A DNA stretch of 64,000 nt. Origin: a virus. Numbering within the stretch: the first letter of the stretch is position 1; the number at the start of each line of letters is the position of its first letter. Under the pieces are notes generated by a model. The model was given only the letters and a program-made list of their open reading frames with translations, was not told the DNA's origin and did no database searches. This document shows positions 20,416 to 52,200 of the stretch, piece by piece. The translations under genes and the position numbers were made by a program. The DNA lies in IMG/VR virus record IMGVR_UViG_3300025101_002824, positions 50,085 to 114,084 of that record; one strand, 5' to 3'.

Positions 20416-23400
20416 ATGGCTAAAAAGCAGCAAAAAAATACAGGTGGGAAAAAAACTCCTAAACGTCAAAATACTGACATAGTAAATACTAATGCCTTTA
20501 TTAAAGGTATGAATAAAGATACTGATAGTGGATATTTTGATAAACAAAGTTGGTATCATGCACGTAATTTAATAAATAATTCTGTTGATGGTGATTTAGG
20601 TGTAGTTGGTAATGAACCAGCAAATTTAAGATGTGCAAAGATTCCTTATACTGTTATAGGAGGTATTCATTTATATGGAGACCAGTGGGTAATATACTCA
20701 ACTAATGATATATTAAGTGAAATAGGTTTATTTGACGACAGTGAATGTAAATACACTACATTAGTAAATGATGATTGTCTTAATTTTAATAAAGATAATT
20801 TAATTATAGGAGCTGCTAAAGAAAATTTTGATTGCACATGGCAAGTATATTGGGATGATGGTTTAAATCCATCCAGAACATTAAATATTGATAATATACC
20901 ATATGTGCAAATAGTTGATCCAAATACACCAGCTGGATCTACATGTATAAATTATATTAATGCTGAACCATTAATGTTAGATTGTGAAAGAATTAGATTA
21001 GCTCCATTAATTGATATACCATGTATTAAATTAGAAAAAGCAGATCAAGGAGGATTATTAGAAAATGGTAGTTATCAAGTATATGCAGCATATTGTATAA
21101 ATGAAAAACCTGTTACAGATTATTTAGGTATTTCAAATATACAACCAATTTGGTCAAGAGAAGATACACAAGGATCACTTACAATAGAACTTTCTAATTT
21201 AGATACTGAATTTGATCAATTACAAATTGTTGTTAGATCTAGAATAAAAGGTCAAGCTACTAATACAGTATTAGGTTTATATAGCACAGAAACAAAATCA
21301 ATAAATATTGATTATATAAATGCTGAATTACCAAAAGTATTATCAAGCACATTACAAAGAAGAATTCCTACATATGAAAAATCTGAAGGAATGTTTGTTG
21401 TTAATGATTATTTAATAAGATCACAACCTACAGAACAATTTGATTTTAACTATCAACCTTTAGCTAATAATATCCAAACATACTGGACTTCTACACAATA
21501 TCCTTCTAATTATTATAGAGAAGGTGGTAACAAACCTACACTATTAAGAGATGAGCAATATGCTTTTTTTATAAGATTTATATATAATACAGGAGAAAAA
21601 TCAGCATCATATCATATACCTGGACGTGCTCCAACAGCTGCTGATGAATTACCTATTGGAGGTGCTGGTAATAATTTTGATAACTCACCAACATGGAGAG
21701 CAGGTAATACTGCATCTTCTCAACCTGGAAATCCTTTTGTAGCTTCATTACTTGGAACTAATACAGATGATGGTGGAACTATTATTGATGGAGGTCTAAT
21801 GGGATTTTGGGAATCTACAGAAGTTTATTCACCTACTGACCCAACTAGATATGGTAATCTTTGTGGTCAACCTATAAGACATCATAAAATTCCTGATGAA
21901 ACTGTTCCTGGTATAGGGACTACATTAACAGGAGCTGGTGAAACCATTCATGTTATAGGTGCTGCTTTTGATAATATAGCACCTCCTGTTGATAATGATG
22001 GTAATGTAATACCTAACATTATTGGATATGAAATATTAGTAGGTAGCCGAGCAGGTAATAGATCTATACTTGCTAAAGGTATTATGAAACACATGTTTAG
22101 GTTTAGAAGAACTCAAAATGATGGTATACGTAATGCTCAAGGATCACCAGATAATTTTGCTTCAGGAACAGGTTTAATGCCTAATTATCCTTTTAATGAT
22201 TTAAGAGCAGATCCTTATTTAATTGGTAGAGATAGTAATAGTATTAGCCAATTGCCTTGGTATGCACAATTTGGAACAGCACCAGAAGAAAATTGGCACA
22301 GAGGAAATACAAATCAAGCTGATGGTTTAGAATTTAATACTGTTGATGCACGGACATTTACTTTTCATTCACCAGAATTAAATTTCTCTAGATTATATTT
22401 AAATCCAACTACAGTAAAAATTTATAAAACAGTAAGTGGAATTGTTTTAGGAAGATTTAAAAAATCAGAAGAACATCCTAGAATGAAGTTATTAAAAAAT
22501 AGAGCAGCAACTGTAGCAGCATTAGTTGGTGTAGGTTATGCTTTAGCAGAAATGCGTGGTAAAAGAAATTATAAGATTGATACCATGCAATCTACGTCTA
22601 TTGGTGAATTTGGTGCACATGCTTTAGGATCTGGTTCACATATGTCACCTTTTGTTGGTCCTGGTACAGGACTTGCTGCTGCAAATGTAGGTGCATCATC
22701 AGCAAGTATTTGGCTTGGAGCTGCAGCAGATGTAGGTTTTAATACTTTAGTTGATATAGGCGCTATATTTGGTGCTGGTAAAGTAGTTCGTCAAGTAGGT
22801 ACACCTATTTATCAACAAGTTGAAGTTGCGTCTACAGCTGCAGCAGCTGGACATATTGGTCCAAAAAGATCTATTCAATATATGGGTAGTGATTTTTCTT
22901 CTATTCCTTCATTAATGTCTATTGCAATAGGTATTATTTCATTTTTAAATTATGTTGCAGTTGGTGGTGATAAAATTATTGATTTAATATTGAATCTTAT
23001 AGGGTTTCAAAACTATGCAATGAAATATATATCTCATGGATATTATCAAAATGAAACTCCATTTTTAGGTACACAATTTAGACAATCTGTAGATAGAGCA
23101 AGATATATTAAAAGTGCTATACAATCATTTGATGGTCAAGATGTAATATACAATAACCTTAGACCTTCTACTGTTGTATTTAAAGTGGCTAATCCATGGG
23201 GAGATTCTTTACCAGGAATTAATGGAGGGCCTATTGATAACACTAAATTTACAATTGGTGCAGGAGCAAATGGATGTGCAGGTAATGGTAATAATAGTAT
23301 GAGTTGGTATAATCCAGGAGAGGAAGTAGAATCAACTGCAGTTGCACATTATATGTCATTTAAAACTTTAATGGATAATCAATATGGTCAGTTAGATAGT

Positions 23401-26400
23401 ATTATTCAACTTACTACACAAAATTGTTTTTATTTTAGAACACAACAAAATGTTGATCCTGATGGTAATATTCTTCCAATAATTTCACAAGATAGATTTA
23501 GTACTGATACAGTATATGCGGGTGATTCATATATATGTAGATATACAGAAAAATCAATTATGCCATTCTTCTTTGACTTTTTAAAAGAAGGAAGAGATGG
23601 TATACCATTTGATTATTCTAAATATGCAAATGTACCATTTCCTAGATTTTGGATGAATTCAGAAAAATTCCGTATGGATCAATTTGTAAGACCAATAACA
23701 AGTTTAAGGTTTAGATGGAATGGAACTGAAGCTTTACCTTCTGGGTATTATAATATGGATTGTCCAGAAAATGGTGGTTATTGTGCACCTCAAGGTGTTT
23801 TTCAACCAGGTACAATTGGTACAGGATTAGGTGCAAATTTTGGTGAAGGAGGAGCTGCTGGTTCAACACAACAAGATGGATCTTCTGCTGGTTCTGGTGC
23901 TATAAATCAAAATCAAACTGGTTTTACACAAAGTTCAGCTGTAGGTGGTGCAGCTTGGGATGATCCTAATGATGATTGGAATCTAGAAAACAGTATGGCA
24001 GCATATAATAATAGGTTTCAAGTTATAAATATTAGTGGTAATGGTAATGGAGGTTCAGATATACCATATAATATTAACATGGGTAGTAATAGTGAAAGAT
24101 GGTCAATAATTGGAGCAGGACAAGATGTTATAACAATAACACCTGCAGCTGGTGTACTAAATCCAGTCCCTACAAATCCAGCAAATCCGCCTGGACCAGC
24201 TTTAGCTGCAGCCGTAGAAACTACACCTAATTTTAATATAACCATAGAAGATCATAGTTACAGTGTACCTTTAGATTCTCCTGGTAATGGACCTTCTATT
24301 ACTAAACAATGTGGTTGTGATTTTGTTAGTTTTGTTAGAGAAGATACAGATGATAGTACATTTACTCCTAGTTTATTTAGTGATTTTGGAACAGCAACAG
24401 CAAGATTAATTTGGGATTGGTCATCTGGTACATTTATAGGTATGACAAATGTAGCAACTGGTTTTTATGCTTCTAATGACCCTACAATAACTGCAGGTGG
24501 TACAGGAAATCCAAGTGATGTTTTAACAAGTTCTGCAAATTTTACATTTCAAAGTGGACTTCTGACTAATCAAGTACAAGATGGTTTTCCATTTGTTTGT
24601 AACAATACAGCAATAATGGGTCAAGGTGCATTTCAATTTCCTAATGCTCAAGCTACTCCAGGAGGTGCTAATGATATAAGTGCTGCTAATCAAAGAAATG
24701 GTGTACAAGCTGGTGGACCAGGTGATCCTCAAGCTCTTGCTGATAATGCCGAACAAGCAGCACAAGATTCAGTATTTGTAACAGGTAATCAACCAGGAGC
24801 TGTAGGTGCTGGTGGTACTGCTACTGGGGGATTATTTGTAATTAAAACAGGATATATGTATACCCATAATTGCGGTATAAATGATTTCTGGGTTGAATCT
24901 TCAATGAATCTAGCTTATAGAGATTATGAAGATGTAGCAAGAAAACAACATTATGATGATGAAAATTTTACTGATCTTGTAGAATTATTTCATGCTAAAA
25001 TTGTAAATTTAGATAATTATTATTTTTATGATAGATCAACATCAGTTGATAAATTTTGGGGTTCATCATGGGGACGTATACAACCAAGTTATTATGATCC
25101 ATTAATTGCAGAAAACTGTTTTATTAAATATCCAAAAAGATTATTATACTCAGTTCCAGCTACAGGATTTAAAGATAAAGCAACGCTTTCAAATAAAAAT
25201 GATGCAAAACAAGATTTTTGGAGAGTGTATCTTACAGAAAACTTTAGAGATTTTAAAGCAAAAGTTACAACAATAAAACCTATTAATGAGACAGGAGCTT
25301 TAATATTCTTTCCAACAATGTCTCCTAAAATGTTCCAAGGACAAGATAGATTACAACTATCTAATACAAAACTTACAATTGGTGATGGAGGATTATTTAG
25401 TCAAGCTTTTCAAAATATAACAAACTCTGATGTATCACACGAGTATGGATCATGTGAAAGTGCAAGAAGTGTATTAAATACTCCTTTTGGTATTTTCTTT
25501 GTATCTCAAGCACAAGGTAAGATTTTTCAATATAGACCAGGTGGTGGTTTAACACCAATATCAGATCAAGGTATGAAATGGTGGATGAATAAATTTTTAC
25601 CATCTAAGCTATTAGAATACTTTCCTTTAATAGAAGATTGTCCTGAAGCAGTAGACAATCCTGTAAATGGTGCAGGTATACAAACTGTATATGATCCTAA
25701 TAATGACATAGTATATTTCTGTAAAAAAGATTTTATACCATTACCGCAATTTCAAGATAATGATTGTATAGAATATATACCTTGTGAAGGTTTTGTTTAT
25801 AATGCAACAAATTGTGAAGGTTTACCACAAGTACCTTCATGTCCTGAAGGATATACATTAATACAAGATCCTGTAACAGGGCAAGATGTTTGTCAATTAT
25901 TATATACTGAAGAACCAATTATATTAGCTACAGAACAATTTAATTATGGTGCAGGTATTGCTATTGGTACTGACTTAGGATTTGGTAATAATGGAACAGC
26001 AAGATATGGTGTAGATTGGCCTATTGTAATTGATGATGTATTTACTGATGGAATGCCTACTAACCAAGCTGATCCAAATACATGGCATTATATAACAGAT
26101 AATGGATCAAATGCATGGTGGAGAAATGCAAATCCAACTAATGGAACAAATGGTATTATTAACAGATTAATGAGAGGAGCTGCTGGTACACCAGGGGGAC
26201 AATTTGCACAAGCAGAATTTCAAATTAATATTCCTACTGCTAAAACTGTACATATTTTATTAGCAGCTGATAATGCGTTTGCATTAGATTTAGATACTGG
26301 AACAGGATATACAAATTTTGTAACACCTGTTGATGCAACTATATTTGGTGCTGTAACTCAGGGTGGTGGTATATGGAATCCTCAAGCAGTTCCAGGAGGA

Positions 26401-28836
26401 AATTTTGCATGGTTATCAGGTGATGCAGTTGATGCATCTCAATATTCAAAAGCTTGGATATATAAATTAGATTTACCATCAGGATGTACAAAATTTAGAA
26501 TGACAGGTACTAACAATGGTGCTGGTTTTGCAGGTCTTGCTGCTGCTGTTATTGATGTTAATGATTATCAAGATATACAAGATGCTACATCATGGGAATC
26601 TTTACCTAAATTATGGGATTCTGAAACTTATGATTTTATTGTTCCTGGAACTACTACTGATTTTAGATGTCCTCCAAACTTTACAATATTTACTGACGGT
26701 ACAGATGGTAGTACAGAAGAGTGTCCAGTATGTAGAGAAGATATAATAATATATAATTGTGATTGTATGACAGATCCAACATCTAATATACCAGGTGTAT
26801 TAATAGGAACATGTCCAGATGCATTTGGTAATGCTGGATCATCTTATTGTCAATACGAAGGATATGCTGATGTTGAAATGATTGATCAAACTTATCCTAT
26901 AGAAGTATTAGATACTAATTACTTTAAAGATATATCTTGGACTATTAGTTATGATCCAAAAACTAAAGCATGGTTATCTTTCCATGATTGGCATCCTAAG
27001 TTAGCATTTAATAGTATAAGACATTTCTTAACTACTAATACTGAAATGACAGAAGTTCCTCAATGTCCAGATGGATATACATGGAATGGTACAAGATGTT
27101 GTTTATCATTACATCATGAAGAGTTAGCAGAAGTTAATGTAACTGAATTTTTATCTACAGTTGAAAGTACACCAGCAACTGTACAAGCATTTTCTGAAAC
27201 AATGGATATTGTTATTGTAATAGATTTTTCAACATCTATGAGAAACAATGGTGGAATTGGAGCAGCAATGCAATTTGTATCAACATTTGTAAGCGGTATG
27301 GCTCCAGGTATGTTAGGAGGTCCATATGCAGGTCAAGTAAGAATAGGACATGGTAGATGGGGTAGTGGTTCTGCATCTGCGTCTCCTCCAGGAGATCCTG
27401 CACAAATAGTAGGTTTAACTGATGATCCAGCTATAGCTGGTGGAAGTCTTACTGCTACTAATACTCCAATAGGTCAAACACAATATTGGCCACAAAGTGG
27501 AACAACCTTTAATGATGGTATAGATCTTGCTAATACTATGCTTACAGGAAGTACAGCTCAACAAAAAATTGTTATATTTGTTACTGATGCAGGTAGTGCT
27601 CCAAATAATCCAACAAATTTAGCAAATGCTACACAATTAATAGCATTATTTGTTGATAATGCAACTAGTGCAAATAATTGTAGTACTACTACTGGTTATG
27701 GTGATGATCTTGGACCTTTAATTACAGATACAGGTTTACCATCAAATCCGGCATATGATGTTGTAAGATGCGCAAATGTTGGAACTCTTCCAAGAAACGT
27801 ATATCATATAGGGTCAGGTATTGATCCTGGTGAAGAAGGACATGCAGCTTCAGTTGCACAAGATTTAGTTCAATCTTTTACACAATGTACATGTACACAA
27901 GGAATAATTGATACAAGTCCTCTTAATCCTCCATGTTTACCTTTACCATCACCTCCACCACAATGTATAACTTGTTCTTGTCCTCCAGGATTTACTTTAA
28001 TTGGTACTTGTGATAATTCACAAAATCCACCAATATGTAGAAAAATGGATTGTGAATGTACAAGTCCTTTATTTAATCCAGATGAAGACTTAACAATAAG
28101 TGGAGAATGTGATGATATTGTACAATATTTTAATCCATTAACTGGAACAGGTAATCCAACTTATGTAAATACTAATCCTTTATTTTGTATATATGATTAT
28201 GAAGATTGTGTACCTGCTAATTATGAATTAGGATTCTTTTGGAAACATAATATTAGAACTGATTTATTTAATAATTATTATGATAAAAATTATCCTTGGG
28301 AAGTAGATATAATTGAAACTACTGGTCAGCAAGTTACTACATTAAGAAGTATAGAATATCAAATGGAAGCTTATTTATATCAAAATGAAGGTAAAGATAG
28401 ATTCCATGATTTAGATTATAATTTTGATGAAGCTGTTATTTATAATTCAGAACAAGTATCAGGATTATTAGAATTAGAATTAGAACCAAAAAATAATGTT
28501 CAATTGTCAATGTTATATCCTATTGTTGGACCTAACAGTATAAGAACATTGTTTAGTAAAGTTGAACAAAAATATAGATTTAATCAATTTTTTGATATTA
28601 CTGCTGACAGAGGAGAGTTTACAGCAGCAACTAATACAATTTGGGAAACAGATTGGGATGGATATGTTAGAACATTAAACCCAGCTAATTTAAATTATAA
28701 TAAAGCACAACATCAAAGAAAGAAATTTAGACATTACTTTAATCATGTGCTATTAAGAAAATCAGATGAAGCTGCTACAACTAGAAAGATGTTATTAAAA
28801 TTAGAGAATACTAAATTAAATGTATCATTTAGATAA
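20416..28836 (+). CDS. Giant muzzle/stabilisation-type tail protein with VWA domain
   Basis: This 2806 aa protein probably forms the end of the tail barrel. The N-terminus (VNTNAFIKGMNKDTDSGYFD, followed by many beta strands) is typical of the crAss-like tail protein related to phage stabilisation proteins. A hydrophobic section lies near residues 695-860, with two potential membrane-spanning helices. A von Willebrand A domain is inserted at about residues 2258-2450: D2270-F-S2272-T-S2274 with T2363/T2364 and D2391 forms a complete MIDAS metal site. Four Cys motifs of type CP..(F/Y)T occur at C1809, C2085, C2217 and C2522. The protein is about twice the length known for this role; the extra length is mostly Gly/Asn-rich linkers and these domains. 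The stop overlaps the next start. Confidence 0.7.
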   Translation: MAKKQQKNTGGKKTPKRQNTDIVNTNAFIKGMNKDTDSGYFDKQSWYHARNLINNSVDGDLGVVGNEPANLRCAKIPYTVIGGIHLYGDQWVIYSTNDILSEIGLFDDSECKYTTLVNDDCLNFNKDNLIIGAAKENFDCTWQVYWDDGLNPSRTLNIDNIPYVQIVDPNTPAGSTCINYINAEPLMLDCERIRLAPLIDIPCIKLEKADQGGLLENGSYQVYAAYCINEKPVTDYLGISNIQPIWSREDTQGSLTIELSNLDTEFDQLQIVVRSRIKGQATNTVLGLYSTETKSINIDYINAELPKVLSSTLQRRIPTYEKSEGMFVVNDYLIRSQPTEQFDFNYQPLANNIQTYWTSTQYPSNYYREGGNKPTLLRDEQYAFFIRFIYNTGEKSASYHIPGRAPTAADELPIGGAGNNFDNSPTWRAGNTASSQPGNPFVASLLGTNTDDGGTIIDGGLMGFWESTEVYSPTDPTRYGNLCGQPIRHHKIPDETVPGIGTTLTGAGETIHVIGAAFDNIAPPVDNDGNVIPNIIGYEILVGSRAGNRSILAKGIMKHMFRFRRTQNDGIRNAQGSPDNFASGTGLMPNYPFNDLRADPYLIGRDSNSISQLPWYAQFGTAPEENWHRGNTNQADGLEFNTVDARTFTFHSPELNFSRLYLNPTTVKIYKTVSGIVLGRFKKSEEHPRMKLLKNRAATVAALVGVGYALAEMRGKRNYKIDTMQSTSIGEFGAHALGSGSHMSPFVGPGTGLAAANVGASSASIWLGAAADVGFNTLVDIGAIFGAGKVVRQVGTPIYQQVEVASTAAAAGHIGPKRSIQYMGSDFSSIPSLMSIAIGIISFLNYVAVGGDKIIDLILNLIGFQNYAMKYISHGYYQNETPFLGTQFRQSVDRARYIKSAIQSFDGQDVIYNNLRPSTVVFKVANPWGDSLPGINGGPIDNTKFTIGAGANGCAGNGNNSMSWYNPGEEVESTAVAHYMSFKTLMDNQYGQLDSIIQLTTQNCFYFRTQQNVDPDGNILPIISQDRFSTDTVYAGDSYICRYTEKSIMPFFFDFLKEGRDGIPFDYSKYANVPFPRFWMNSEKFRMDQFVRPITSLRFRWNGTEALPSGYYNMDCPENGGYCAPQGVFQPGTIGTGLGANFGEGGAAGSTQQDGSSAGSGAINQNQTGFTQSSAVGGAAWDDPNDDWNLENSMAAYNNRFQVINISGNGNGGSDIPYNINMGSNSERWSIIGAGQDVITITPAAGVLNPVPTNPANPPGPALAAAVETTPNFNITIEDHSYSVPLDSPGNGPSITKQCGCDFVSFVREDTDDSTFTPSLFSDFGTATARLIWDWSSGTFIGMTNVATGFYASNDPTITAGGTGNPSDVLTSSANFTFQSGLLTNQVQDGFPFVCNNTAIMGQGAFQFPNAQATPGGANDISAANQRNGVQAGGPGDPQALADNAEQAAQDSVFVTGNQPGAVGAGGTATGGLFVIKTGYMYTHNCGINDFWVESSMNLAYRDYEDVARKQHYDDENFTDLVELFHAKIVNLDNYYFYDRSTSVDKFWGSSWGRIQPSYYDPLIAENCFIKYPKRLLYSVPATGFKDKATLSNKNDAKQDFWRVYLTENFRDFKAKVTTIKPINETGALIFFPTMSPKMFQGQDRLQLSNTKLTIGDGGLFSQAFQNITNSDVSHEYGSCESARSVLNTPFGIFFVSQAQGKIFQYRPGGGLTPISDQGMKWWMNKFLPSKLLEYFPLIEDCPEAVDNPVNGAGIQTVYDPNNDIVYFCKKDFIPLPQFQDNDCIEYIPCEGFVYNATNCEGLPQVPSCPEGYTLIQDPVTGQDVCQLLYTEEPIILATEQFNYGAGIAIGTDLGFGNNGTARYGVDWPIVIDDVFTDGMPTNQADPNTWHYITDNGSNAWWRNANPTNGTNGIINRLMRGAAGTPGGQFAQAEFQINIPTAKTVHILLAADNAFALDLDTGTGYTNFVTPVDATIFGAVTQGGGIWNPQAVPGGNFAWLSGDAVDASQYSKAWIYKLDLPSGCTKFRMTGTNNGAGFAGLAAAVIDVNDYQDIQDATSWESLPKLWDSETYDFIVPGTTTDFRCPPNFTIFTDGTDGSTEECPVCREDIIIYNCDCMTDPTSNIPGVLIGTCPDAFGNAGSSYCQYEGYADVEMIDQTYPIEVLDTNYFKDISWTISYDPKTKAWLSFHDWHPKLAFNSIRHFLTTNTEMTEVPQCPDGYTWNGTRCCLSLHHEELAEVNVTEFLSTVESTPATVQAFSETMDIVIVIDFSTSMRNNGGIGAAMQFVSTFVSGMAPGMLGGPYAGQVRIGHGRWGSGSASASPPGDPAQIVGLTDDPAIAGGSLTATNTPIGQTQYWPQSGTTFNDGIDLANTMLTGSTAQQKIVIFVTDAGSAPNNPTNLANATQLIALFVDNATSANNCSTTTGYGDDLGPLITDTGLPSNPAYDVVRCANVGTLPRNVYHIGSGIDPGEEGHAASVAQDLVQSFTQCTCTQGIIDTSPLNPPCLPLPSPPPQCITCSCPPGFTLIGTCDNSQNPPICRKMDCECTSPLFNPDEDLTISGECDDIVQYFNPLTGTGNPTYVNTNPLFCIYDYEDCVPANYELGFFWKHNIRTDLFNNYYDKNYPWEVDIIETTGQQVTTLRSIEYQMEAYLYQNEGKDRFHDLDYNFDEAVIYNSEQVSGLLELELEPKNNVQLSMLYPIVGPNSIRTLFSKVEQKYRFNQFFDITADRGEFTAATNTIWETDWDGYVRTLNPANLNYNKAQHQRKKFRHYFNHVLLRKSDEAATTRKMLLKLENTKLNVSFR

Positions 28837-30377
28837 TGAAATATAGCAAGGACGGATATAAAAGAAATAGCAAGGATAAGAATAATCCTTATAATATAAT
28901 ACCATCAGGTAATATAACTATGGAGGATGTAGATTTTCCTGTACTTGGTATGGATAACTTAGGTAATAGTAAAGTTATGATGCCAGGTGCTAATTATACA
29001 TTTCCTGGCAATTCTGTTTTTGAAATACCAATGTTTTCTAATGGTGGACCTAAAAAAAATAAATATGGTCTTACATATAATCTTTTAAAAAGTTATATTG
29101 ATAGAGGAAAATTAAATTATGGTCTTATAAAACAACATCCTAGATTACTTATTCCTAGTACTATAAGAAATCAATATGATTTATATAAGTATATGAATAC
29201 TGCAGATATGCGTGGTATTACTGGTAGAAATCTTATAGACAATGTTACAATACCTATTCAAAAAGGCAGTAGTTTAATTCAGCATAGAGGTTTAAAAAAT
29301 TCTTCTGAAATAGATGAATCTATGGAAAAGATATTAGCAGATTATACAATTAATTCTGCTCCTTTTAAATTTAGTTCATTTGATGGAAAATCAGGATATG
29401 TGCCTCAAGGTGGTTTTCCAATGGTAAATACAGGAGATACTAGACCTTTTTTTATACAAGATGATTCATATGCAAAACTATTAGATGACTATTTAAAAAA
29501 TAATAATATTAGTTGGAAAAGTTTAGATAGAGATAAACCTATAGAATTAAATAGAGCATTTGGAACATTTGATGTTACAAGTTCTTCTGGCGGAAGTTTA
29601 CAAGATTATATAGATAGATTAAAATCAGGAGAAGTTTTTAGTTTAGGAGATATAACATCTTGGTCAATTGGTAAACCTTTACCACAATTTGGTAGTCAGA
29701 GATTTTTAATTAAAAATTTTCCAACTAATAGAAATGCGTTTGTAAATAGACCTGATTTAAATAAATTTTTAACTAGAAATCAAAAACAATCATTTGTTGA
29801 AACAGAATTATTATTACCAAGTGATACAAAATTTAAAGTAACTAATTTAATTAAAAAGTCACCAAGACAGCCTCTTGAATATAAAAAAGATAGCAAAGGT
29901 TTAATTTATGATCCAGTACCACAATGGGGAACAGATATTGAATTAGAAGTACAAAAAAAAGGTGGTGAAAAAAAATCTAAATATGTTAAATCTCCTTTTA
30001 CAAAAGGAAAATTATCTTTAGCAAATACAGATGGTTTAATAAATAAAATGATTAATCAGGGTATTTTTAAATCTGAATTTGCAATGGGAGGACAGTTAAA
30101 ATTAAATAATGGATATACAGTAAAAAAACATTTTGATAAATTAAAAGACATACCTTATATATCATATACAAAACAACCTGATATAGAAGGAAGAGTATAC
30201 TATGATTCAGATAGCACAGATGTTTTAGATGATTTTAACATTATAGATGTTGAATCAAATTTAATTAAAAAACAAAGAAAACATAAAAGAACTAAAGATA
30301 TAATATTAAAATATAAAAACGGAAATAATCTTACACAAACAGAAAAAGCACATTTAAACTCATTAGGGTTATTGTAG
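28836..30377 (+). CDS. Probable virion ADP-ribosyltransferase (cargo protein)
   Basis: This 513 aa protein follows the muzzle gene with a TAATG overlap, in the place of ejected 'cargo' proteins. Its middle shows the R-S-E triad of the arginine-specific ADP-ribosyltransferase fold: R151 in IQHRGL, a Ser motif T274-S275-W-S277, and E322-T-E324 followed by LLLPSDTKFKV, which matches the usual 'E.E.LLP.GT.F.V' strand of this family. The E-x-E form suggests modification of arginine. Flanking regions are basic and include two '..GG' motifs (MFSNGG near residue 66, FAMGG near 415). By analogy with T4 Alt, the protein could enter the host with the DNA and modify host proteins. Function is inferred; the triad is seen. 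Confidence 0.65.
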   Translation: MKYSKDGYKRNSKDKNNPYNIIPSGNITMEDVDFPVLGMDNLGNSKVMMPGANYTFPGNSVFEIPMFSNGGPKKNKYGLTYNLLKSYIDRGKLNYGLIKQHPRLLIPSTIRNQYDLYKYMNTADMRGITGRNLIDNVTIPIQKGSSLIQHRGLKNSSEIDESMEKILADYTINSAPFKFSSFDGKSGYVPQGGFPMVNTGDTRPFFIQDDSYAKLLDDYLKNNNISWKSLDRDKPIELNRAFGTFDVTSSSGGSLQDYIDRLKSGEVFSLGDITSWSIGKPLPQFGSQRFLIKNFPTNRNAFVNRPDLNKFLTRNQKQSFVETELLLPSDTKFKVTNLIKKSPRQPLEYKKDSKGLIYDPVPQWGTDIELEVQKKGGEKKSKYVKSPFTKGKLSLANTDGLINKMINQGIFKSEFAMGGQLKLNNGYTVKKHFDKLKDIPYISYTKQPDIEGRVYYDSDSTDVLDDFNIIDVESNLIKKQRKHKRTKDIILKYKNGNNLTQTEKAHLNSLGLL

Positions 30378-40238: not shown

Positions 40239-43200
40239 ATGGCAGAAGAAACTATAAATTTAGATTTTCAACCTAATGTTCCTGACAATTCTAATATTAA
40301 TGAAGCAGTTGATCAAACAGCTTTAAATCAAGGAATTATTACAACGCCAGAGATTACACTTAATCCTCCAACAGGCGGTTATACTCCTACTAGCATACCA
40401 TCAGTTAATGTTGATTTTGAAAACATAAGAGATCAATTAATAATTCCTAATTCTGGTGAGCCAATACAAACAACTATTGATCCAACAGTTGTTAGAGGAG
40501 CTAATGGTTTAGCTAACATGATGAATTCTAATCCTGTTATTATGGATTATCCATATAATATGGATCCAAATTCTAGATTATTTAGATCAGAAAATGTTGT
40601 TGATGATCCATTAGGTCAAACTATTTTAGACTACAATGCTCCAGAATTAAATCAAACTGCTGTTTCTAATCCAATAGAATTACAACCATTAAATTTTGAT
40701 AAAAAAGCTACAAACTATGATAGGTATAATGCACCTGGTTTTAAACATTTATTTAATAAAATAGGATTTCATCCATATGTAGATAATGAAACTGTATATA
40801 ATGCAAATTCTACATGGTGGGATGAAAATGCTAGAATGAGAGGTCAATGGGGTAGAATATTTAGTACTGGATTTATGAGTACTTATGATGCAATAGCTGA
40901 TGCTTTTAATGGCAATTATTTATCTGGAGATACAGATGGTGCAGATGTATTTGAAGATGCTATGAGAATAGGTAATTCTTCTAAAAGTGGTATAGGTGCA
41001 TTTACCAATAATCTTATGCTTAACTCAGGATATACTTTTGGTATTCTTGCAAATATTGCTGTAGAAGAACTTGCACTTGCTGGTTTAGAAGCAATAACAG
41101 TTGGAGGTGCTACTCCTATTGTAGCTAGTAGAACAGCATATAATATAGTTAGATTAGGTAAAGCTGCTGATAAATCATTAGATGTACTTAAAGGTGCTAA
41201 ATCATCTGCAAACCTTGTAGATAAAGTAGAAGATGCTGCTACAGCTAGATCTTTTTGGCAAAATGCTGGTAGATGGACTATGAATGTTATGACTCCAAAT
41301 ACACTCAAAGCAATAAAAGAAATAAAGACTACACAAAATACAGCTAAAGCATTATCATTAATGGCTAAGACTGCTAAAACTGCAGGAGGTTTTTATAGAG
41401 ATGCTAGAATGTTTAATCTTGCAATAGCAGAAAGTAAGTTAGAAGCTGGTTTAGTACAGAATAAATTATATAATGATTTATTTCATGAGTATGTAGCAAA
41501 ATATGGATCTAGACCTATGGGTGATGATCTAAAAAAAATAAATAATACAGCGCAAGAAGCAGCATTTACTACATTAATGTGGAATTTTCCTGTTATTTTC
41601 TTTTCAAATCAATTTGTATTAGGTACTGCTCTAAGAGGATTTAGAGGATTATCTGGTGTATTTGGTAAAACTGCTGGATCATTAGGAAATAGAATAATGA
41701 GAAAGACAGCAACTAAAGGTGCAAAAGAAGCTGCTAAAACAGATGTTAAAATATTAAGTAAAAATAGACTTAAAAGAATATACGAAAGAGGATTATATGG
41801 TAATTTAAGAAATGCTGGTGCAAGCTTATTAAGATATTCTTCAGCTAATCTTGCAGAAGGTTTTCAAGAAATAACTCAAGAAGCTATTGCTGTAGGTGCA
41901 GAAGATTATTATAAAAATCTTTATAGAGATCCTGCAATGGGTGGTCTTGATGCACAAATGGCATCTATATATTCAGGTGCAAAATCACAAATGAGTGGTC
42001 AAGGGTTTGAAGTATTTATGTCAGGATTTTTAATGGGTGGTTTAGTTCAAGGTCCACAAAAACTAGTATTTAATGGATTACCAAATTTGTATAGCAGGTT
42101 TGCAACACCAGAAGAATTTGCAAAACAAAAAGAACAAGAAGAAGAATATCTAAAAGAAGCTAAACCAATACTAGAGGAAATGTATAATAATCCTCAAGAG
42201 TATTTTGATCCTAATAAGATCAATGCAATGTTTCAAAAAGAAGCTAGTCAGGATATGCTTAACTCTACATATGATGGAGATGTAAGATCATTTTATGACA
42301 AAAAAAATGCATTAATATTTAATCATTTATATACAGCAGCATCATTAGGTAAATTAGGAGACTTTGCTCAGTACCTTGAGGATATGTCTAAACTTGATGA
42401 TCAAATGTTAGCTGAAGCAATGCCAGATCAAAGTGCAGATGATATTAAATCAGGTAAGACTAGAGAAAGACTTACTGAAATGTCAGAAAAAGCTGATGAT
42501 ATGCGTAAAGCTTTTGACAAGCTTAATGAAGAAATTGTAAATCCTTTTGATCCAAATTTATACAAAGAAGGAACAAGAGAACAAAGAGAAGAAGCTATAA
42601 GATATGCTGCATTTGATCATGCTAGAAAAATGGCAATGTTTGCTAGAGATCAATTTAATAATACTGCAAAAAGAATATCATCTATTTATAATACATTAAG
42701 TACAGATCCTATTATTGCTAAAATGGCAGCTAATGATATTGATGTTCTTACAGATATACAATCATTAATTTCTGAAATAAATTTATTAAAAAATGAAATT
42801 GATATAGCAACAAGACCAACTGTTGTTACTGAAGAAGTTGAAGATGAAAAAACTGGAGAAAAATCAATAATAGAAAAAGAAGAAATACCAGAATTAAATA
42901 CAGAAGAGTCAGCAGCATTAAAAAGTAAACAAGCAAAATTAATTGCTTTACAAAATATATTTAATGTTATTACTGATCCTGCTAATGTTACTGAAAGAGA
43001 AATATTTTCAGATGCTGAATTAGAAAAAATTGAAGATCTTACTGAGCGTTCTAAAGAAAGAGCTGCACGTGATCAAAGAGTTAAAATTGTTGAAGATTTA
43101 AGAAAACAAATTTTAAGCACTGATGTTAATAGAGATGTAACATTAGAAGCTATTGTTAATATTATATCTGATAAAAATTTAATGAACTCATTTGGTGAGT

Positions 43201-46200
43201 TTGATGTTGCAAATAGAGATAAATTTAAAAAAGTATTTGTTGAATATTTAGATCTATTAGCAAAAGATTTAGGTGATAATATTCAATCAGATAAAATTGA
43301 TGATTATGTAGATTTAATTTTAGATTCTAAATCATTAACTCAAAGACAACAAATTTTAAGCAAAGCTGTAAGAACTATACTAGCTCCTCAAAATCTTGTA
43401 TCATTAGCAGAAAGAATTGAGCCTAGATTTAAAAGAGCATTTGAAGAAAACAAAAGAAATGTAACTCAAAGGCTAAGAGAATATTTAAAAGTTACTAAAA
43501 CAAATATTTGGTTAAATGAATTATCTGCTATAGGAGTATATCCTGATCATGCAGAATTAATTTCATATTTAGAAAAGAACGGACCAATACCAAAAACTTA
43601 TTATACTGAAAATGGTTTACTTAATGAAGCTGATTCTCAATGGGAAAAAGCAAACTATATTATTTCTGCTCAAGAAAATTTAACAAAAGAAGATAAACCA
43701 AAAGTACAAGAAACAGAAGATATAGAAGATGATATAGATTATGAAACTAATTTTGTAGATGAAGTAGATGAAACAGATGTAGAAGAAGAAAGACAAAATC
43801 AAGAAGGTGATTTATTTTTAAAACAAAAATATATTGACTATGTTAAACAAAGTTCTGCTTCTAATAAAAAGTATTTACAGTTTAGTGATTGGGTAAACAA
43901 CAAAGTATCTAAAAAAGCTAGAAGACAAGCAGTAGCTATAGAAGATATACATCAACAAGTATATAGCCCATTATTTTTAAAAAATAAAAATCTTCCTAAC
44001 TTTTATGATTGGTTACCTACTCAATCTAATAATGAAAAAGTATTAGATATATTATTGTTTAGAAATGTATCTTTTTATGATATTTTACCTAATACAGAAT
44101 CTAGCCAAACTTTTAATGAAAGTACTGTTAAATCTACAGATAAAGTTACAAAACATAAATCAGGATTAAATGTTACTGAAAGATCTACAGTTGATAAAGA
44201 AGATGGTAAAACTAAAAAAGTATATTTTATTACTGATAATAATAATAACCCTATTGATAGTAGTGCATATACATCTAAAAAAGATGCAACATTAGCTAGA
44301 AATAAAAAAATTAAACAAAAGAAAAAGGCACCTACATTTGATTTTGGTAATCTAAAAGGTTTATCTAAAGGTACTGTCCTTGTTAAAAATGGTGTTTTAT
44401 ATACTGTTGGATCAACAAAAGAAATGGTTGATAACTTTGGTAATTTTTATGTTGTTGAATCTTCTAAAGTAGGATCAAGAAAAGCTGAAGATAGAATTAT
44501 AATAGACAATATAGAAGATGCTAACACATATAAAGAAGCTAGTCCAGAAAATATTAACTATATAAAAGATGCATCCAAATTAAAAATAGAAGAAGCAGTT
44601 AAAGTTAATCCAACTTATGATAGAACAATTTCTGATAGGGTAGAGCAAATAGAAGATGGCATAACTAAACAACAAGCATTATTACGTAAGTTAGATCCTG
44701 AAAAAATAAAAACACTTAGATTACGTATTACTGTTGGTCCTAATCAATCTGAATTATCTAGACCAATAGAAGAAAAAGGTTCTTTTCAATTTGGAACTAA
44801 AAATGAAAATGTTAAAATTAAAAAGAATGCACAATTATTATCTATAGAAATATATGATGAAGAAGGTAGTTATGGATATTTTCAAGGTCCTGAAACAGTT
44901 CTTTTTACAGATGGACAAGCAAATCCTACACGTATTAGTCCATTTGAATTAACTGAATCTACTGTATTAGATTATTTTGATATACCAAATAAAATGTCTG
45001 CAGCTGATGCTTTAAGTATTGTTCAAAATAATTATGCTGAATCATATGAAATTTATAAAATTTTTAAAGAAGAACTTAAAGGAAGAGATATAATAGAAAC
45101 TGATTTAACTAATTATCCTCAGTTAATGCTTAAACTTTCTGAAGGTTCATTAACCAGAAGTAAATCTAATCCTTTAATTACTTTTGATTCACTTGAAACA
45201 ATGTTTGTTAGTGAAGATACTTCTAATACAATAGATGGAGAAAGACCTTACTTTATAATGGACTATAGTAGAAGGTATGAAAGACCTAAGAACAATAAAG
45301 AAAAAATGAAAGTTCAAGGTGCGCCTATAACTAATATAGATCAGTCAAGTGTTTTATTTGAAAATTTAATGTCAGAAGTTGATGAATTTGAAGCAAACTA
45401 TGATGTTTTAAATAGAATGGGTAAATACATTGCTTTTGTTAAATTATCTAATGGTAAATCTGCATTTGTAGGATTAACTGCTCCTGTCTATAGTCCTGAA
45501 AGTTTTAATGAACTTTTGCTTGAAATGCAAAATGAAGCAACAAGAGTTGCAGAAAAGAATGTTAATAAAGATGGTACTGTAAAAAATAAAACTGCAACAA
45601 AAGCATTTAATGAAAAAATAGCAGATACTATTTATTTAGCAGCTGAACCAGGAATATATATAGAATTAGGTATCTCTAATGTTGGTCAGTTATCTGTTAA
45701 ATATACTAACATGAATTTATCTAAAAGATCTAAAAATAGAGAAGCAAGAGGTTTTATTGGATATGATGAGTTAATGAAATTTAAAGATGTTCAAGAATTA
45801 ATAAATAGATTAAATGAATTTGTAAAACCTATATACCCAACTGGGTTTACATTAGAATCTATAAAAACATCTGTACAAAAAGGTGAAAATGATATTGCTA
45901 TATTAGGAACATTAGAAACAAGATTTACACCAGAAATAAAAAATAATTTTAGATTAGAGTTACGTGTAGATCCAAATGTTGTTAGTATTGATCAATTGTT
46001 AAGAAATGGTTTATCTACAAGTATGCCTGATTCAAGTGAAACAATAGATAAGTCAACACCTAAAGTAGATTTAACAACAGAAGAAAAACAAGATCTTGTA
46101 TTAAATGATTATGATAATGTAGATCCTAATTATGCTTTAGATATAGTTAAAAGAGATCAAGCCGGTGAAGAGTTAACTGAATTTGAAAAAGGCGTATTAG

Positions 46201-49200
46201 AAAATTTACCTGAAGATATGGTAGCTGGTCTTATTATTCAAGTTCAAAATGAAAGAACAGAAAATATATCAAATGCTGAAGTTGCTTTAAATCAAAATTA
46301 TCAAGGTATAAGTTTTAAAGCTGAAGAAGATTTAAAAACATTTGTTAAAAGATATTATGAAACAAGACTAGTTCAAATTAAAGGACAAAATCCTGAAATA
46401 TCTGAGTCAGATATACTTACTACTATCAATGCAGAAATGAAGGACATAGAAACAAATCCTGAAAATCCTTTATATGTTGGTTATCAAACTTTAAAAAAGA
46501 TACAAGAAGATTCTGATGGTAAAGCTTTTAAAATTACAGACAATTTTGATGGCAATGATATAGAAGATATAAATACTTTTACTAATTGGGTGCGTGATAA
46601 TTTAAATACAGATGTTATTAATATATCAGTAGATAATCTACAAACAAATATGATTAATGACAATATGTTAGTTGGTCAATTTATGTTATATGTAAATAAC
46701 TTACAACTAGCTGGAGAAATTAGTGTTGGTACAAATAATCCATTTAAATATCATGAAGCATTTCATGCTGTATTTAGAATGTTCTTAACTGAATCAGAAA
46801 TTAAAAGATATTTAAAAGCAGCTAAAAAAGATGTTTTAGCAAAACTTAGAAGTGAAGGAAAAACATTATCAAATGAATTAGCAGCATTTAGAAAACAACA
46901 TGGTTTATATGCTAAATTATCTAGAAAACAATTAGAAGAAAGATATTTAGAAGAATTTATGGCAGATGAGTTTGAGGCATTTAAAATGAAACAAAAAACA
47001 AATGTTAGCTCTGAAACTAAAAGTTTATTCCAAAAGATTATAGACTTTATAAAAGAAATATTAGGTTTTCCTGGATATAAATTAAATAGGTTATATAAAA
47101 ATATAGATGCAGGTAAATATAAACGTGCTGGAATACAAGAAAATAGATTTACTACAGCTGCATCAGCCACTCCTTCTATTGCTTATAAGTCTCTAACATT
47201 AGGAACTAAAAGAATTAAAACTATTACTGATACATCAGAGACTTTTAAAACAATTAATAATTATATGCCTAGTGATGATCAGCATATGATTATTTCTTCT
47301 GCTGCTAATCTATTTAACATGAGAAAAAATAATGCAGTTGATGCTGTTGATACAGCTGCTATGTTAGATGGTGCTATAAATGATATTATAGAAAACTATA
47401 ATCCTGATAGACAGTTTTATAAAGATAAAGGTGCTATTTGGTATATAGATAATATGAGTAAAATCAGAAACTACTATGATTCATTAATCCGTCAAAAAGA
47501 TGATGTTAAAGAATTAGTTAGACAAAGATTAGAAGAAATAAATAATGCAATATTAGTATCACAAGAAGAACTTGAACAAGAAGAAGCCGACTTAGGAGAT
47601 ATTACTGTAGATCAGTGGGATAAAACTACTGAAATGATTGGTGGTTTTGAAAGTGCTCCAAAACTTATTAGAGAATTAATAGGTAGTGTAAATATACCAA
47701 GTCAAGATATGTTTGGTAATAAATTTATTGGATCAGAAGAAAATAAAGAACGTGTTGTTGTAGGAGTTAATTACAGTAAAGTGTATGATTCTATTTTAAA
47801 AGCAACAGCTAATGAGCCTGACTCAAAGAAAATGTTTAAAAAACTTTGGGTTTGGTCACAAGGTAGTAATGTAGAAACAAGAGCAGTTGTTGTAGAAATG
47901 TTTAAACAACTAGGATTATTAGAAGCTGCTCAAGATGGAACACTATTTGATCCAGCTCAACCATTTCCAAGTATGAATAGTGAAACAGGTATAAAATCTA
48001 CATTATTTAATACAATTGTAAATGCATTTGAAAATTATACAACACCATATCTAATTCAACTAGTAGATAGTAAAACAGGAGTTGTTCAAATTTTTGAAGC
48101 AAATAAAGCTGATGATGCTCATAATACATTAGTACAATGGGCTGAATCATTTAATAGAAAATATGATGAAATTAGAATAGTTGGTAGTAAACAAAATAAA
48201 GCTGCTAGTAGAGCATTAGGTCAATTAGCACAATTTATAAATCTTACTTCTATTCCTGAAAATATAAATTTAATAGATAGATCTGTTGAATTATCAGATT
48301 TAGTTTTTGAAACTACAGGAATGAAGTTTGACTCTAACTATATTTTATTTAGTTTGTATAATAGACTTTCAGATTTAAATATAGAAATATCAGAAGATCA
48401 AAAACTTTTATTTGAAATAAATCAGTTTGCTGATCCAATGTCATATGAAGAAATTGATTTAATTATACAATCATTAAACTCTGGTGAAAATTTATTTTTA
48501 GATAATCAAGAGCTGGATATTGAAGAAGTTGATGAAGCTACAAGTGAAATACAACAATACTATGAAGGTGGTGTAAAAGGTAGACTTAGAAAAATTGCAG
48601 TAAATAATGGATATTTTGCTGAAACAGTAGGTGCTTCTACATTTATAAATGAAGAAGGTAATAGAATATATGGTCATCAAAGACCTACATATCATCTTGT
48701 TGAAATAGCAAGAATGACTACTGAAGATAACTATGTAGAAAATAAACAAGCAGAAGATTCATTTTTAGAAACAAACTTTTTATTAAATGATGATAAGTTT
48801 AAATCTATGCAAGAAAGTGGTCAGATTAAATTGTTCCGTATGTCAGGACAAAAAAATGGCGTTGCTAATTTAACTGCAGAAGGAATTATAAAAGAAAATA
48901 GAGGGTATAATAAAGGTGGTAGAATGGGTACTAAGTACGGTAATTTTACTCCACAACAATTTATTGTTTCTCTTATAAATAACTATACAGCTAACTATAA
49001 CAGAGTTAATCCAGAAAATTCTTTAATTGGTTCATATGTAAATACAAATGGTGAGTCTGTTGAGTTTGCAATAGCTCCATCTCTTATACGTGTTATTGAA
49101 GCAAGTAACACAGGAGATCTTGTTATGTTACCTGTAGAAAAAATGATAGAGTTTGATGCACAAGGAAGTATTAATCTTACTGATGAAGGATATAAAATAT

Positions 49201-52200
49201 TTGAAAATATAATTAAAAGAGATGCTGAGTTAATTAAAAATGAATTAGATCCAGAAACAGCTACAGAAGATAATATTATAGGCGGTAATTCAAACAGTAG
49301 TGGTCAAAGAACTAATAAAGGTAGATTATTTCAATTATCTCATAATGGTAAAAAATTATTATCAGTTTACAAACCAAGACAAAGAAATGTTCAATATGTA
49401 AAAGATCCAGCATTAGGAGAAGATACTAGAAATGCTATTAGACAAGGTAAACAATCTATAGTTTTAGCAACAGAAAAAAATGCAAACGAAACACAACTAA
49501 CTACAAATCAAGAAGGTCTTGTTGATTTCACTATTGTAGAAACACAACCTGTTGCATTATTAATGAAAAATGAAGGATCTATTATATCTAGTGAGTTAAG
49601 CACAGAAGAAACAGAAAATTTAATAGAACAGTTAGGACCTTATGTAAGAAAAGAAAGAGTAAAAGGTGTAAGAATGTATGGTTTTGTTTTATTTAGAGGT
49701 ACAGATGCAGAACAAATTTATTATACCTTTAGTCAAGATGTTGCTAAATTTTTTAAAGGTGAAACTCCATTAGTAAAATTTTCTTTTACTGATCCTATTA
49801 ATAATGAGTCAATAAAAACAACTATAACTACAAATGAAAGTGGTCAAGAAATTATAGATACAGAAGATATTGATACTACACCAGCTGAAACATTTGAACA
49901 ATTAATAAATGATGGAGCTACATTTGATGAAGCATTTAAAGCTATAGATGGAAAAAGAATTATTGAAGAAAGATTGCTTGCTGAAGTTAATGAATTTATA
50001 GAATTACTAAAAGAGTTTAAAGCAATAAATAAAATATCTGCAGATATTAGTCAAGGTTTAGGTGTTGTTATGGATGATACAAACACTGGAACTATTGTTA
50101 ATGATCTTGATATGGATAATCCTAATGTTTCTAAATTAATGGATTTATATAATTTAAAGCCAGGTGAATTAGAATTTAATTTAATGCAAATCTTTTTAAA
50201 TGATTATAAAAACACATTATCAATAAATGACATTCTATTAGGAGATCAAAGACTTTCTCTTAAAAATGCTATTGATGCTATTAAAAGAGCTAAAATGCAA
50301 AATGCTGCAGGTGTTAATGCTTATTCACCTGTTATAGCTCCAGAATTAGGTATAAATCATAGTAATGAAAATATAGATATGCTTCTTTATGAAGATAGTT
50401 TATATAGAAAAGAATTTGATAGAATACGTCAAGAAGACAAAGAATTAGATGAAGAGTTTGGTGAAAGAGGAGATGGTCAGTTACTTCAAACTACAAAAGC
50501 ACATAGATACATGCTTCATGGATTTGGAGAGTTAACACCACAAGTTGCAGCTGTATTAGATAAAATTGAAGCAGGTAAAGAAGTAGAAATAAATAATGAG
50601 TTTTTTGGATCATTAACTGCTGAATCATATAAACAAATGAATGCTATTATGAATTCACAAAAACTTGTTTATGGTGATGGTAAGGTATATTTAAAAATGT
50701 CTGCATTTACTTTAACTCCATTACTTACTTCTAGACAAGATGAAGAAGGAAACTTTACAATTCCTATTCCTGGAAGAGAAAAGCTACATAATTTACGAAT
50801 TAAAATGGAAGCTTGGGAAAAGGAAAATAATAGTATAATGATAGCTGTACCTGGTTCTGCATCTAAAATGATGAAAGCAAATATGGCTACTAACTTAAGT
50901 GCTTTTGATAATTCTACAATTAATGGTGGTAATGTAACAAACCTAAGCAGTAAGTTTATGCGTAAACAAATGGTTGTTCCTTCTAATAAAATAGAAATTG
51001 TTGATCCACGTCAAATAAAAAATCTAATTACATCTGAGCAAGATTTAAGTTCTAAAGTAATTTGGGATGGTGTACAATTTACAGTTGGTGATGTTGTTGA
51101 TTTATATCATCAAGCACAAGGAAATAAACTTGCTGTTAACTGGTTTGCAAAAAGAAATTTAACTTTTAATTTTGAAAAAATTCAAAATGATTTCTTAAAT
51201 CCACAGACAGCTGCTGGTATGACAATAGACCTAGCAACATTTTTAAAATTTGCTATAGCTGGTTTAACATCATCTCAAGCTAAAACAGATATGCTTGCAT
51301 ATTTTGAAATGAATCCAGATGGAACAGGTGAACCAACATTTAATTTAAATAATCAATTAACAAGAAAAAAATTCCAAACTCTGTTTATGAGTTATATAGC
51401 AAAAGGTACAATTTCTGCTAGACAACCTGGTATTAGTGCAGCTCTTGTTTCTGATGATGGTATACTATTTCCTAAAAGAGTAAAAAGAGTAGATGAAAAT
51501 GGTACACCAATAGAATGGGAAGTTATAAGAGAAAAGCAATGGGCTCAACTTGAATCTGAAGGTGCACGTGCTAAAATATCTAATCTTGGTCAACTTAGCG
51601 GATTACCAGAAGGGTTAGAAGTAGGTGATTATTTCTTTGATAGACTTAGATCAGATGTTATGATGTATAATGAAGATGGTACTGAGTCAGGTGTAGTATA
51701 TACTGAAGCTGTAATACCTCCACATTTTAAATCTATATTGCAAAATTTACCTGCTAATGCACCTATTCCTGATGTATTAGCAATGGCATATGGTATTAGA
51801 ATTCCATCTCAAGATAAACACTCTGCTGTAAATGTAAAATTTATAGATTTTTTACCTGTATATTATGGATCATCTGCAATGTTTGCCAGAGAGTTAGTTG
51901 AACTATCTGGAGCTGACTTTGATATTGATAAACTTTATATGCAAATAAAATCTTTCTTTGTTGATAAAGGAAAGTTTGTAGAATATGGTAAAGGTAAAAA
52001 TGAAAAAGAAAATTATAATCATTATTTAAATTGGGCTTTTGATCAAGCTAAAGAAAAAGGCACCCCAATTAGAGAAGCAATTGAAACTTATATGCTATCA
52101 AATCCAGAATTAAAATTTAATTTAACTGAGTGGAATAACATGACTCAAGATGAATTAGATGTATTAAATGATTCTGAAGTTATTACAAGAGTAGCAATGG

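What the first reader, a model, noticed from the sequence alone, without database searches (positions are those of the whole stretch)
28836..30377. A probable R-S-E ADP-ribosyltransferase among the ejected virion proteins
The sequence shows R151, a T-S-x-S motif at 274-277 and E322-x-E324 followed by a 'LLPSDTKFKV' strand, in the right order and spacing for the arginine-specific ART fold. T4 Alt is a known packaged ART that modifies host RNA polymerase. I know of no described ART in crAss-like phage cargo. Gene position makes delivery with the genome plausible.
Basis: partly seen in the sequence, partly recalled or inferred. Interest (0 to 1): 0.85.

Follow-up and report, generated by a model that had tools for sequence, protein, structure and literature searches.

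The report
Virion-linked ADP-ribosyltransferase in crAss-like phage
A crAss-like phage carries, right after its tail "muzzle" gene, a protein that joins a conserved virion-protein end piece to an enzyme domain predicted to attach ADP-ribose to host proteins, and related phages swap other enzymes into the same slot.

Summary
Of 78 viral ORFs retrieved with a relaxed form of its E-x-E strand motif, 73 match Pfam ADPrib_exo_Tox. A profile of those ARTs scores the ORF 22.4 bits against 6.0 for the best of 1000 shuffles; profile-profile probability is 96% with R240, S275 and E322/E324 in register. An AlphaFold model (pTM 0.69, built with ART relatives) matches only ARTs among the 50 best PDB hits listed. 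Pfam alone misses it. Residues 1-66 are a separate conserved domain whose Cellulophaga phi4:1 homologue was found in virions by MS/MS. Long proteins with this domain lie directly after a muzzle homologue in 52 of 54 loci and carry swapped payloads (peptidoglycan enzymes, zincin motifs, and in L112 an unrelated ART-PolyVal). Best reading: a virion-carried effector that ADP-ribosylates host proteins early in infection. Packaging, activity and target are inferred. It is a new variant of the known packaged-ART/polyvalent-effector theme; no report in crAss-like phages was found.

The parts
28836..30377 (+). 513-aa ORF: virion-protein N-domain + ART domain + C-terminal module
28836..29045 (+). Conserved N-terminal domain (residues 1-70), shared with phi4:1 gp40 (virion protein by MS/MS) and about 399 loci in viral contigs
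29169..29954 (+). ART domain (residues 112-373), N-lobe plus catalytic core
29553..29555 (+). R240, predicted catalytic Arg of the R-S-E triad (strand PIELNRAFG)
29655..29666 (+). T274-S-W-S277, the S-x-S motif (S275 aligns to the first Ser of STS)
29799..29840 (+). E322-T-E324-LLLPSDTKFKV, E-x-E motif and following strand
29286..29288 (+).
30288..30374 (+). C-terminal tail (residues 485-513), resembling the tails of other long proteins of this slot (L050, L065, L080)
20416..28836 (+). Muzzle-like protein gene immediately upstream (2806 aa)
40239..55688 (+). 5149-aa virion RNA-polymerase-like cargo ORF with ADFDIDKLY motif, similar to crAss001 gp50

Best explanation
The ORF encodes a virion-carried effector of a crAss-like phage. 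Its first ~66 residues are a conserved structural/cargo domain that places the protein in the particle (shown: homology to a protein found in phi4:1 virions, and a conserved slot after the muzzle gene; inferred: packaging here). Residues 112-373 are an R-S-E class mono-ADP-ribosyltransferase (shown by profile and model comparison) that would bind NAD+ through R240, S275 and E324 (assigned by alignment) and, because the motif is E-x-E, probably modifies arginines (inferred from family knowledge). After ejection into the cytoplasm it would ADP-ribosylate host proteins at the start of infection, working like T4 Alt (inferred; target unknown).
For: E-x-E strand motif: 73 of 78 viral ORFs with it match Pfam PF03496. 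ART profile: 22.4 bits for the ORF, 20.6 for the 45%-identical L050, best of 1000 shuffles 6.0. Profile-profile probability 96%, E 3e-9, with R240, S-x-S and E-x-E in register; column-shuffled controls score at most 22 against 58. MAFFT gives the same register. R240, S275, E322 and E324 are invariant in the three family members. AlphaFold pTM 0.69, core pLDDT about 80-93; the 50 best PDB matches listed are ARTs. N-domain: virion family phrog_36695, phi4:1 gp40 found by MS/MS. Slot: muzzle homologue directly upstream in 52 of 54 loci with a long N-domain protein. A second, unrelated ART (PF18760, over its cut-off) occurs behind the same N-domain in L112.
Against: Pfam and PDB sequence searches of the ORF alone find no ART. 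With the E-x-E strand masked, the ART profile no longer separates it from shuffles, and the ART set was gathered with that motif. The model used ARTs in its alignment, so it is not independent. Only three members of this ART family are known here. Most payloads in this slot are peptidoglycan enzymes that act in the periplasm, where NAD+ is scarce. No virion proteomics exists for this phage.
Confidence: 0.7

Rival explanations
1. It is an active ART made late in infection that is not ejected: the N-domain only ties it to the virion or assembly site, and it acts in the producing cell, like T4 ModA/ModB in being non-packaged.
For: Phage ARTs that are not packaged exist (ModA, ModB). Ejection of this protein has not been shown.
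Against: N-domain homologue is a virion protein by MS/MS; the gene sits in the structural/cargo block, and the commonest payloads of the slot are entry-type peptidoglycan enzymes.
Confidence: 0.13
2. The ART fold is present but has lost catalysis and serves as a structural or binding domain of a tail/cargo protein.
For: Fast amino-acid change in the ART domain (dN/dS about 0.8, few substitutions); Thr of STS replaced by Trp and Gly after the Arg replaced by Ala.
Against: R240, S275, E322 and E324 are invariant in all three members, including L050 at 45% identity; T4 Alt, ModA and ModB also vary at these neighbouring positions (YRS, SAS, TTS).
Confidence: 0.1
3. It is not an ART: a different fold happens to carry S-x-S and E-x-E look-alike motifs.
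For: Pfam misses it, and only the E-x-E region is significant by itself. A weak hit of the region around R151 to NosD (E 0.0055) was not explained.
Against: Motif specificity 73 of 78; Arg, S-x-S and E-x-E align in order and spacing in separate alignments; confident core in the model.
Confidence: 0.05

Closest known systems
T4 Alt (packaged mono-ADP-ribosyltransferase, NP_049811)
   Same: R-S-E motif order, E-x-E followed by a L-P strand; an ART linked to the phage particle
   Different: No overall sequence similarity beyond motifs; different N-terminal domain and phage type; target unknown here
Pfam PF03496 ADPrib_exo_Tox / PF01129 ART
   Same: Profile built from PF03496 members recognises the domain; same Arg, S-x-S, E-x-E layout
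   Different: Below Pfam detection; S-W-S instead of S-T-S; N-lobe only partly alignable
Polyvalent proteins of phages (PMC5512222)
   Same: Multi-domain virion-linked proteins combining zincin, lysozyme and ART domains; L050 and L112 are of this type
   Different: ARTs there are mostly the H-Y-D clade (PF18760, as in L112); here the R-S-E type; the window protein has a single recognised enzyme domain; crAss-like phages are not mentioned there
Cellulophaga phi4:1 gp40 / phi17:2 gp41 (phrog_36695)
   Same: N-terminal domain (about 38% identity) and the same late gene region; gp40 found in virions by MS/MS
   Different: The rest of the protein is unrelated and has no ART; one extra gene separates it from the muzzle homologue
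crAss001 cargo proteins gp45/gp46 (PMC10172136)
   Same: Position between the muzzle gene and RNA-polymerase cargo genes
   Different: No sequence similarity to gp45 or gp46; the N-domain is absent from them

Membership tests
R-S-E class ADP-ribosyltransferase | Arg on the first core strand, S-x-S and E-x-E in order with family spacing | tested here: met
   R240, S275-W-S277, E322-T-E324 aligned to family columns
R-S-E class ADP-ribosyltransferase | ART fold | tested here: inconclusive
   Model matches ARTs, but ARTs were in the alignment used to build it; the run without them failed
R-S-E class ADP-ribosyltransferase | NAD+-dependent ADP-ribose transfer | not testable with these tools
   Needs biochemistry
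Pfam PF03496 / PF01129 | Score above the curated cut-off | tested here: not met
   No Pfam family at E up to 10 for the ORF or its domain; 73 of 78 motif-matched relatives do match
T4 Alt family | Sequence relation to Alt beyond shared motifs | tested here: not met
   Only the E-x-E strand aligns, 14% probability with the three-member profile
Packaged and ejected phage effector | Present in virions | not testable with these tools
   Only the N-domain homologue in phi4:1 is experimentally virion-borne
Polyvalent protein | Two or more effector domains in one virion-delivered protein | tested here: inconclusive
   Window protein has one recognised enzyme domain; L050 (HELGH motif plus ART) and L112 (HEYAH motif plus ART-PolyVal) have two
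Crassvirales cargo protein C1 (gp45) | Sequence homology to crAss001 gp45 | tested here: not met
   No blastp match better than chance; N-domain profile does not match gp45

The most novel reading that the evidence does not exclude
The ~66-residue N-domain is a portable loading or ejection tag: crAss-like phages swap whole enzymes (peptidoglycan hydrolases, zincins and two unrelated classes of ART) behind it in a fixed slot after the muzzle gene, and ARTs have been recruited into this slot at least twice.
Probability: 0.45. Interest if true: 0.75.

Novelty: new variant of a known kind. Interest (0 to 1): 0.62.

Why it matters
Little is known of what crAss-like phages inject besides RNA polymerase. 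A virion-linked ART would let them modify the host before any phage gene is expressed, as T4 does with Alt. The shared N-domain gives a sequence handle for finding the payloads of hundreds of uncultured relatives, and perhaps a tag for loading proteins into these virions.

Tried and rejected
R151 as the catalytic Arg: rejected on spacing and three alignments. Pfam, PHROG and PDB sequence searches of the ORF alone: no ART hit. AlphaFold of the full ORF with two sequences: pLDDT 32, unusable. hhalign to T4 Alt/ModA/ModB: correct motifs but weak. ART profile with the E-x-E strand masked: not significant. Genome-collection scans with the ART domain and with the N-domain: no relatives. Further scans for this ART family in viral contigs: only L001 and L050. 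Orthology to crAss001 gp45/gp46: rejected. ADP-ribosylhydrolase or macrodomain in the same record: none found. The weak NosD hit around R151 was not pursued.

Full report
What the sequence is. The window is part of a 114-kb viral record. Its proteins match crAss-like phages and their relatives: the portal matches Leptolyngbya phage Lbo-JY46, Cellulophaga phi4:1 and many crAss-like phages including crAss001; the 5149-aa ORF has an ADFDIDKLY motif and matches crAss001 gp50, the RNA polymerase; the 2806-aa ORF matches the annotated muzzle protein of csAssE-Sib. The finding's ORF starts on the last base of the muzzle gene's stop codon and is followed by three large ORFs and the RNA-polymerase ORF. 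In crAss001 the order is gp44 muzzle, gp45 and gp46 cargo, gp47, then gp49 and gp50 on the other strand (PMC10172136). The ORF occupies the gp45 slot but is not a gp45 homologue by sequence.

The ART domain. No library recognises the ORF as an ART. Two relatives were found in viral contigs: L001 (87% identity) and L050 (45% over the C-terminal 400 residues, inside a 1574-aa protein). Of these, 73 match Pfam PF03496, so the motif alone is strongly predictive. A profile of 53 non-redundant ARTs from this set scores the window at 22.4 bits, L001 at 23.0 and L050 at 20.6, against 6.0 for the best of 1000 shuffles. Caution: the set was gathered with a motif taken from the window, so the E-x-E part is favoured; with that part masked the score is not above background. 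Profile-profile alignment of the three family members to the ART set gives 96% probability over 148 columns with Arg, S-x-S and E-x-E in register, score 58 against at most 22 for column-shuffled controls. MAFFT gives the same register. T4 Alt aligns at E-x-E and ModB at LKSGEVFSLGDITSWS, both weakly.

The catalytic arginine. In these alignments the conserved Arg corresponds to R240 in PIELNRAFG (PLTLVREFEG in L050), 35 residues before S275. The domain ends near residue 373 with the strand WGTDIELEV.

Structure. An AlphaFold run on the full ORF with two sequences failed. A second, residues 112-375 with 26 relatives of which 24 are ARTs outside the family, gave mean pLDDT 69.5 and pTM 0.69, with strands at R240, S275 and E324 onwards. 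The 50 best PDB matches listed are ARTs of the R-S-E type, and the viral library returns phage ARTs. Because ARTs were in the alignment, this shows that the sequence is compatible with the fold, not an independent proof. Distances between active-site residues could not be read.

The N-terminal domain and its slot. Residues 1-66 match phrog_36695, a virion structural family, phi17:2 gp41 and Lbo-JY46. The phi4:1 homologue gp40 is annotated from experimental MS/MS proteomics. A scan found 399 stretches encoding relatives of this domain in viral contigs. In the loci examined (some redundant, the window included), long proteins with the domain have a muzzle homologue directly upstream in 52 of 54 cases, while 28 loci with a short, mostly 79-97-residue stand-alone form have no detectable muzzle homologue; two of these that were read have a GroEL-like gene nearby. 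Behind the domain the long proteins carry LysM (16 of 28 scanned), SLT transglycosylase (8), YkuD (8), amidase and lysozyme, and HExxH zincin-like motifs (14 of 41 ORFs). ARTs occur as payload in the window and L001, in L050, and separately in L112, whose ART-PolyVal domain (PF18760) passes the Pfam cut-off. The window protein is one of a family of interchangeable virion-linked payload proteins.

How it likely works. Shown: ART domain by comparison; N-domain shared with a virion protein; conserved slot. Inferred: packaging, ejection, NAD+ use, arginine as acceptor (from E-x-E), early action on host proteins. The slot's bias to peptidoglycan enzymes suggests that proteins there pass through the periplasm during entry; an ART needs NAD+ and so should reach the cytoplasm. 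Faster amino-acid change in the ART (dN/dS about 0.8) than in the N-domain (0.2) fits conflict with host targets but rests on few substitutions.

Novelty. Packaged ARTs (T4 Alt) and ART-bearing polyvalent proteins are known (PMC5512222, PMC9503650). Searches of the held library found no report of ARTs in crAss-like phage cargo, nor does the large crAss-like survey PMC7886860 mention ribosyl enzymes in its main text; subscription papers and bioRxiv were not searchable. I rate this a new variant of a known kind.

Noticed in passing
L105:7998-8234, L070:7989-8225 and 26 other loci: The N-domain also exists as a stand-alone protein of about 80 residues in quite different phages (no other window homologue in the loci tested, GroEL-like gene nearby); its role there is unknown.
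   Followed up: partly
L112:7998-11576: Protein with the same N-domain, an HEYAH zincin-like motif and an ART-PolyVal domain (PF18760): a second, unrelated ART class in the same slot.
   Followed up: partly
L046, L051, L058, L062, L076, L112 and others, C-termini: Recurrent C-terminal module of the form YKxYxxGxYDxTxxExxAxKxYDKLNRxYYxxAKxxxxxPNYIM in many long N-domain proteins, absent from the window protein, which has a different short tail shared with L050 and resembling L065 and L080.
   Followed up: no
window:28836-36745 and related loci: Domains of these cargo-type proteins are often separated by short G-G motifs (such as SNGG, AMGG, QKGGS, AQYGG) that look like linkers or processing sites.
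   Followed up: no
window:20416-28836: The muzzle-like protein is very long (2806 aa) and holds a stretch resembling a von Willebrand A-type domain (DIVIVIDFSTSM).
   Followed up: no
window:40239-55688: The 5149-aa RNA-polymerase-like ORF also carries an HEAFH motif near residue 2172.
   Followed up: no
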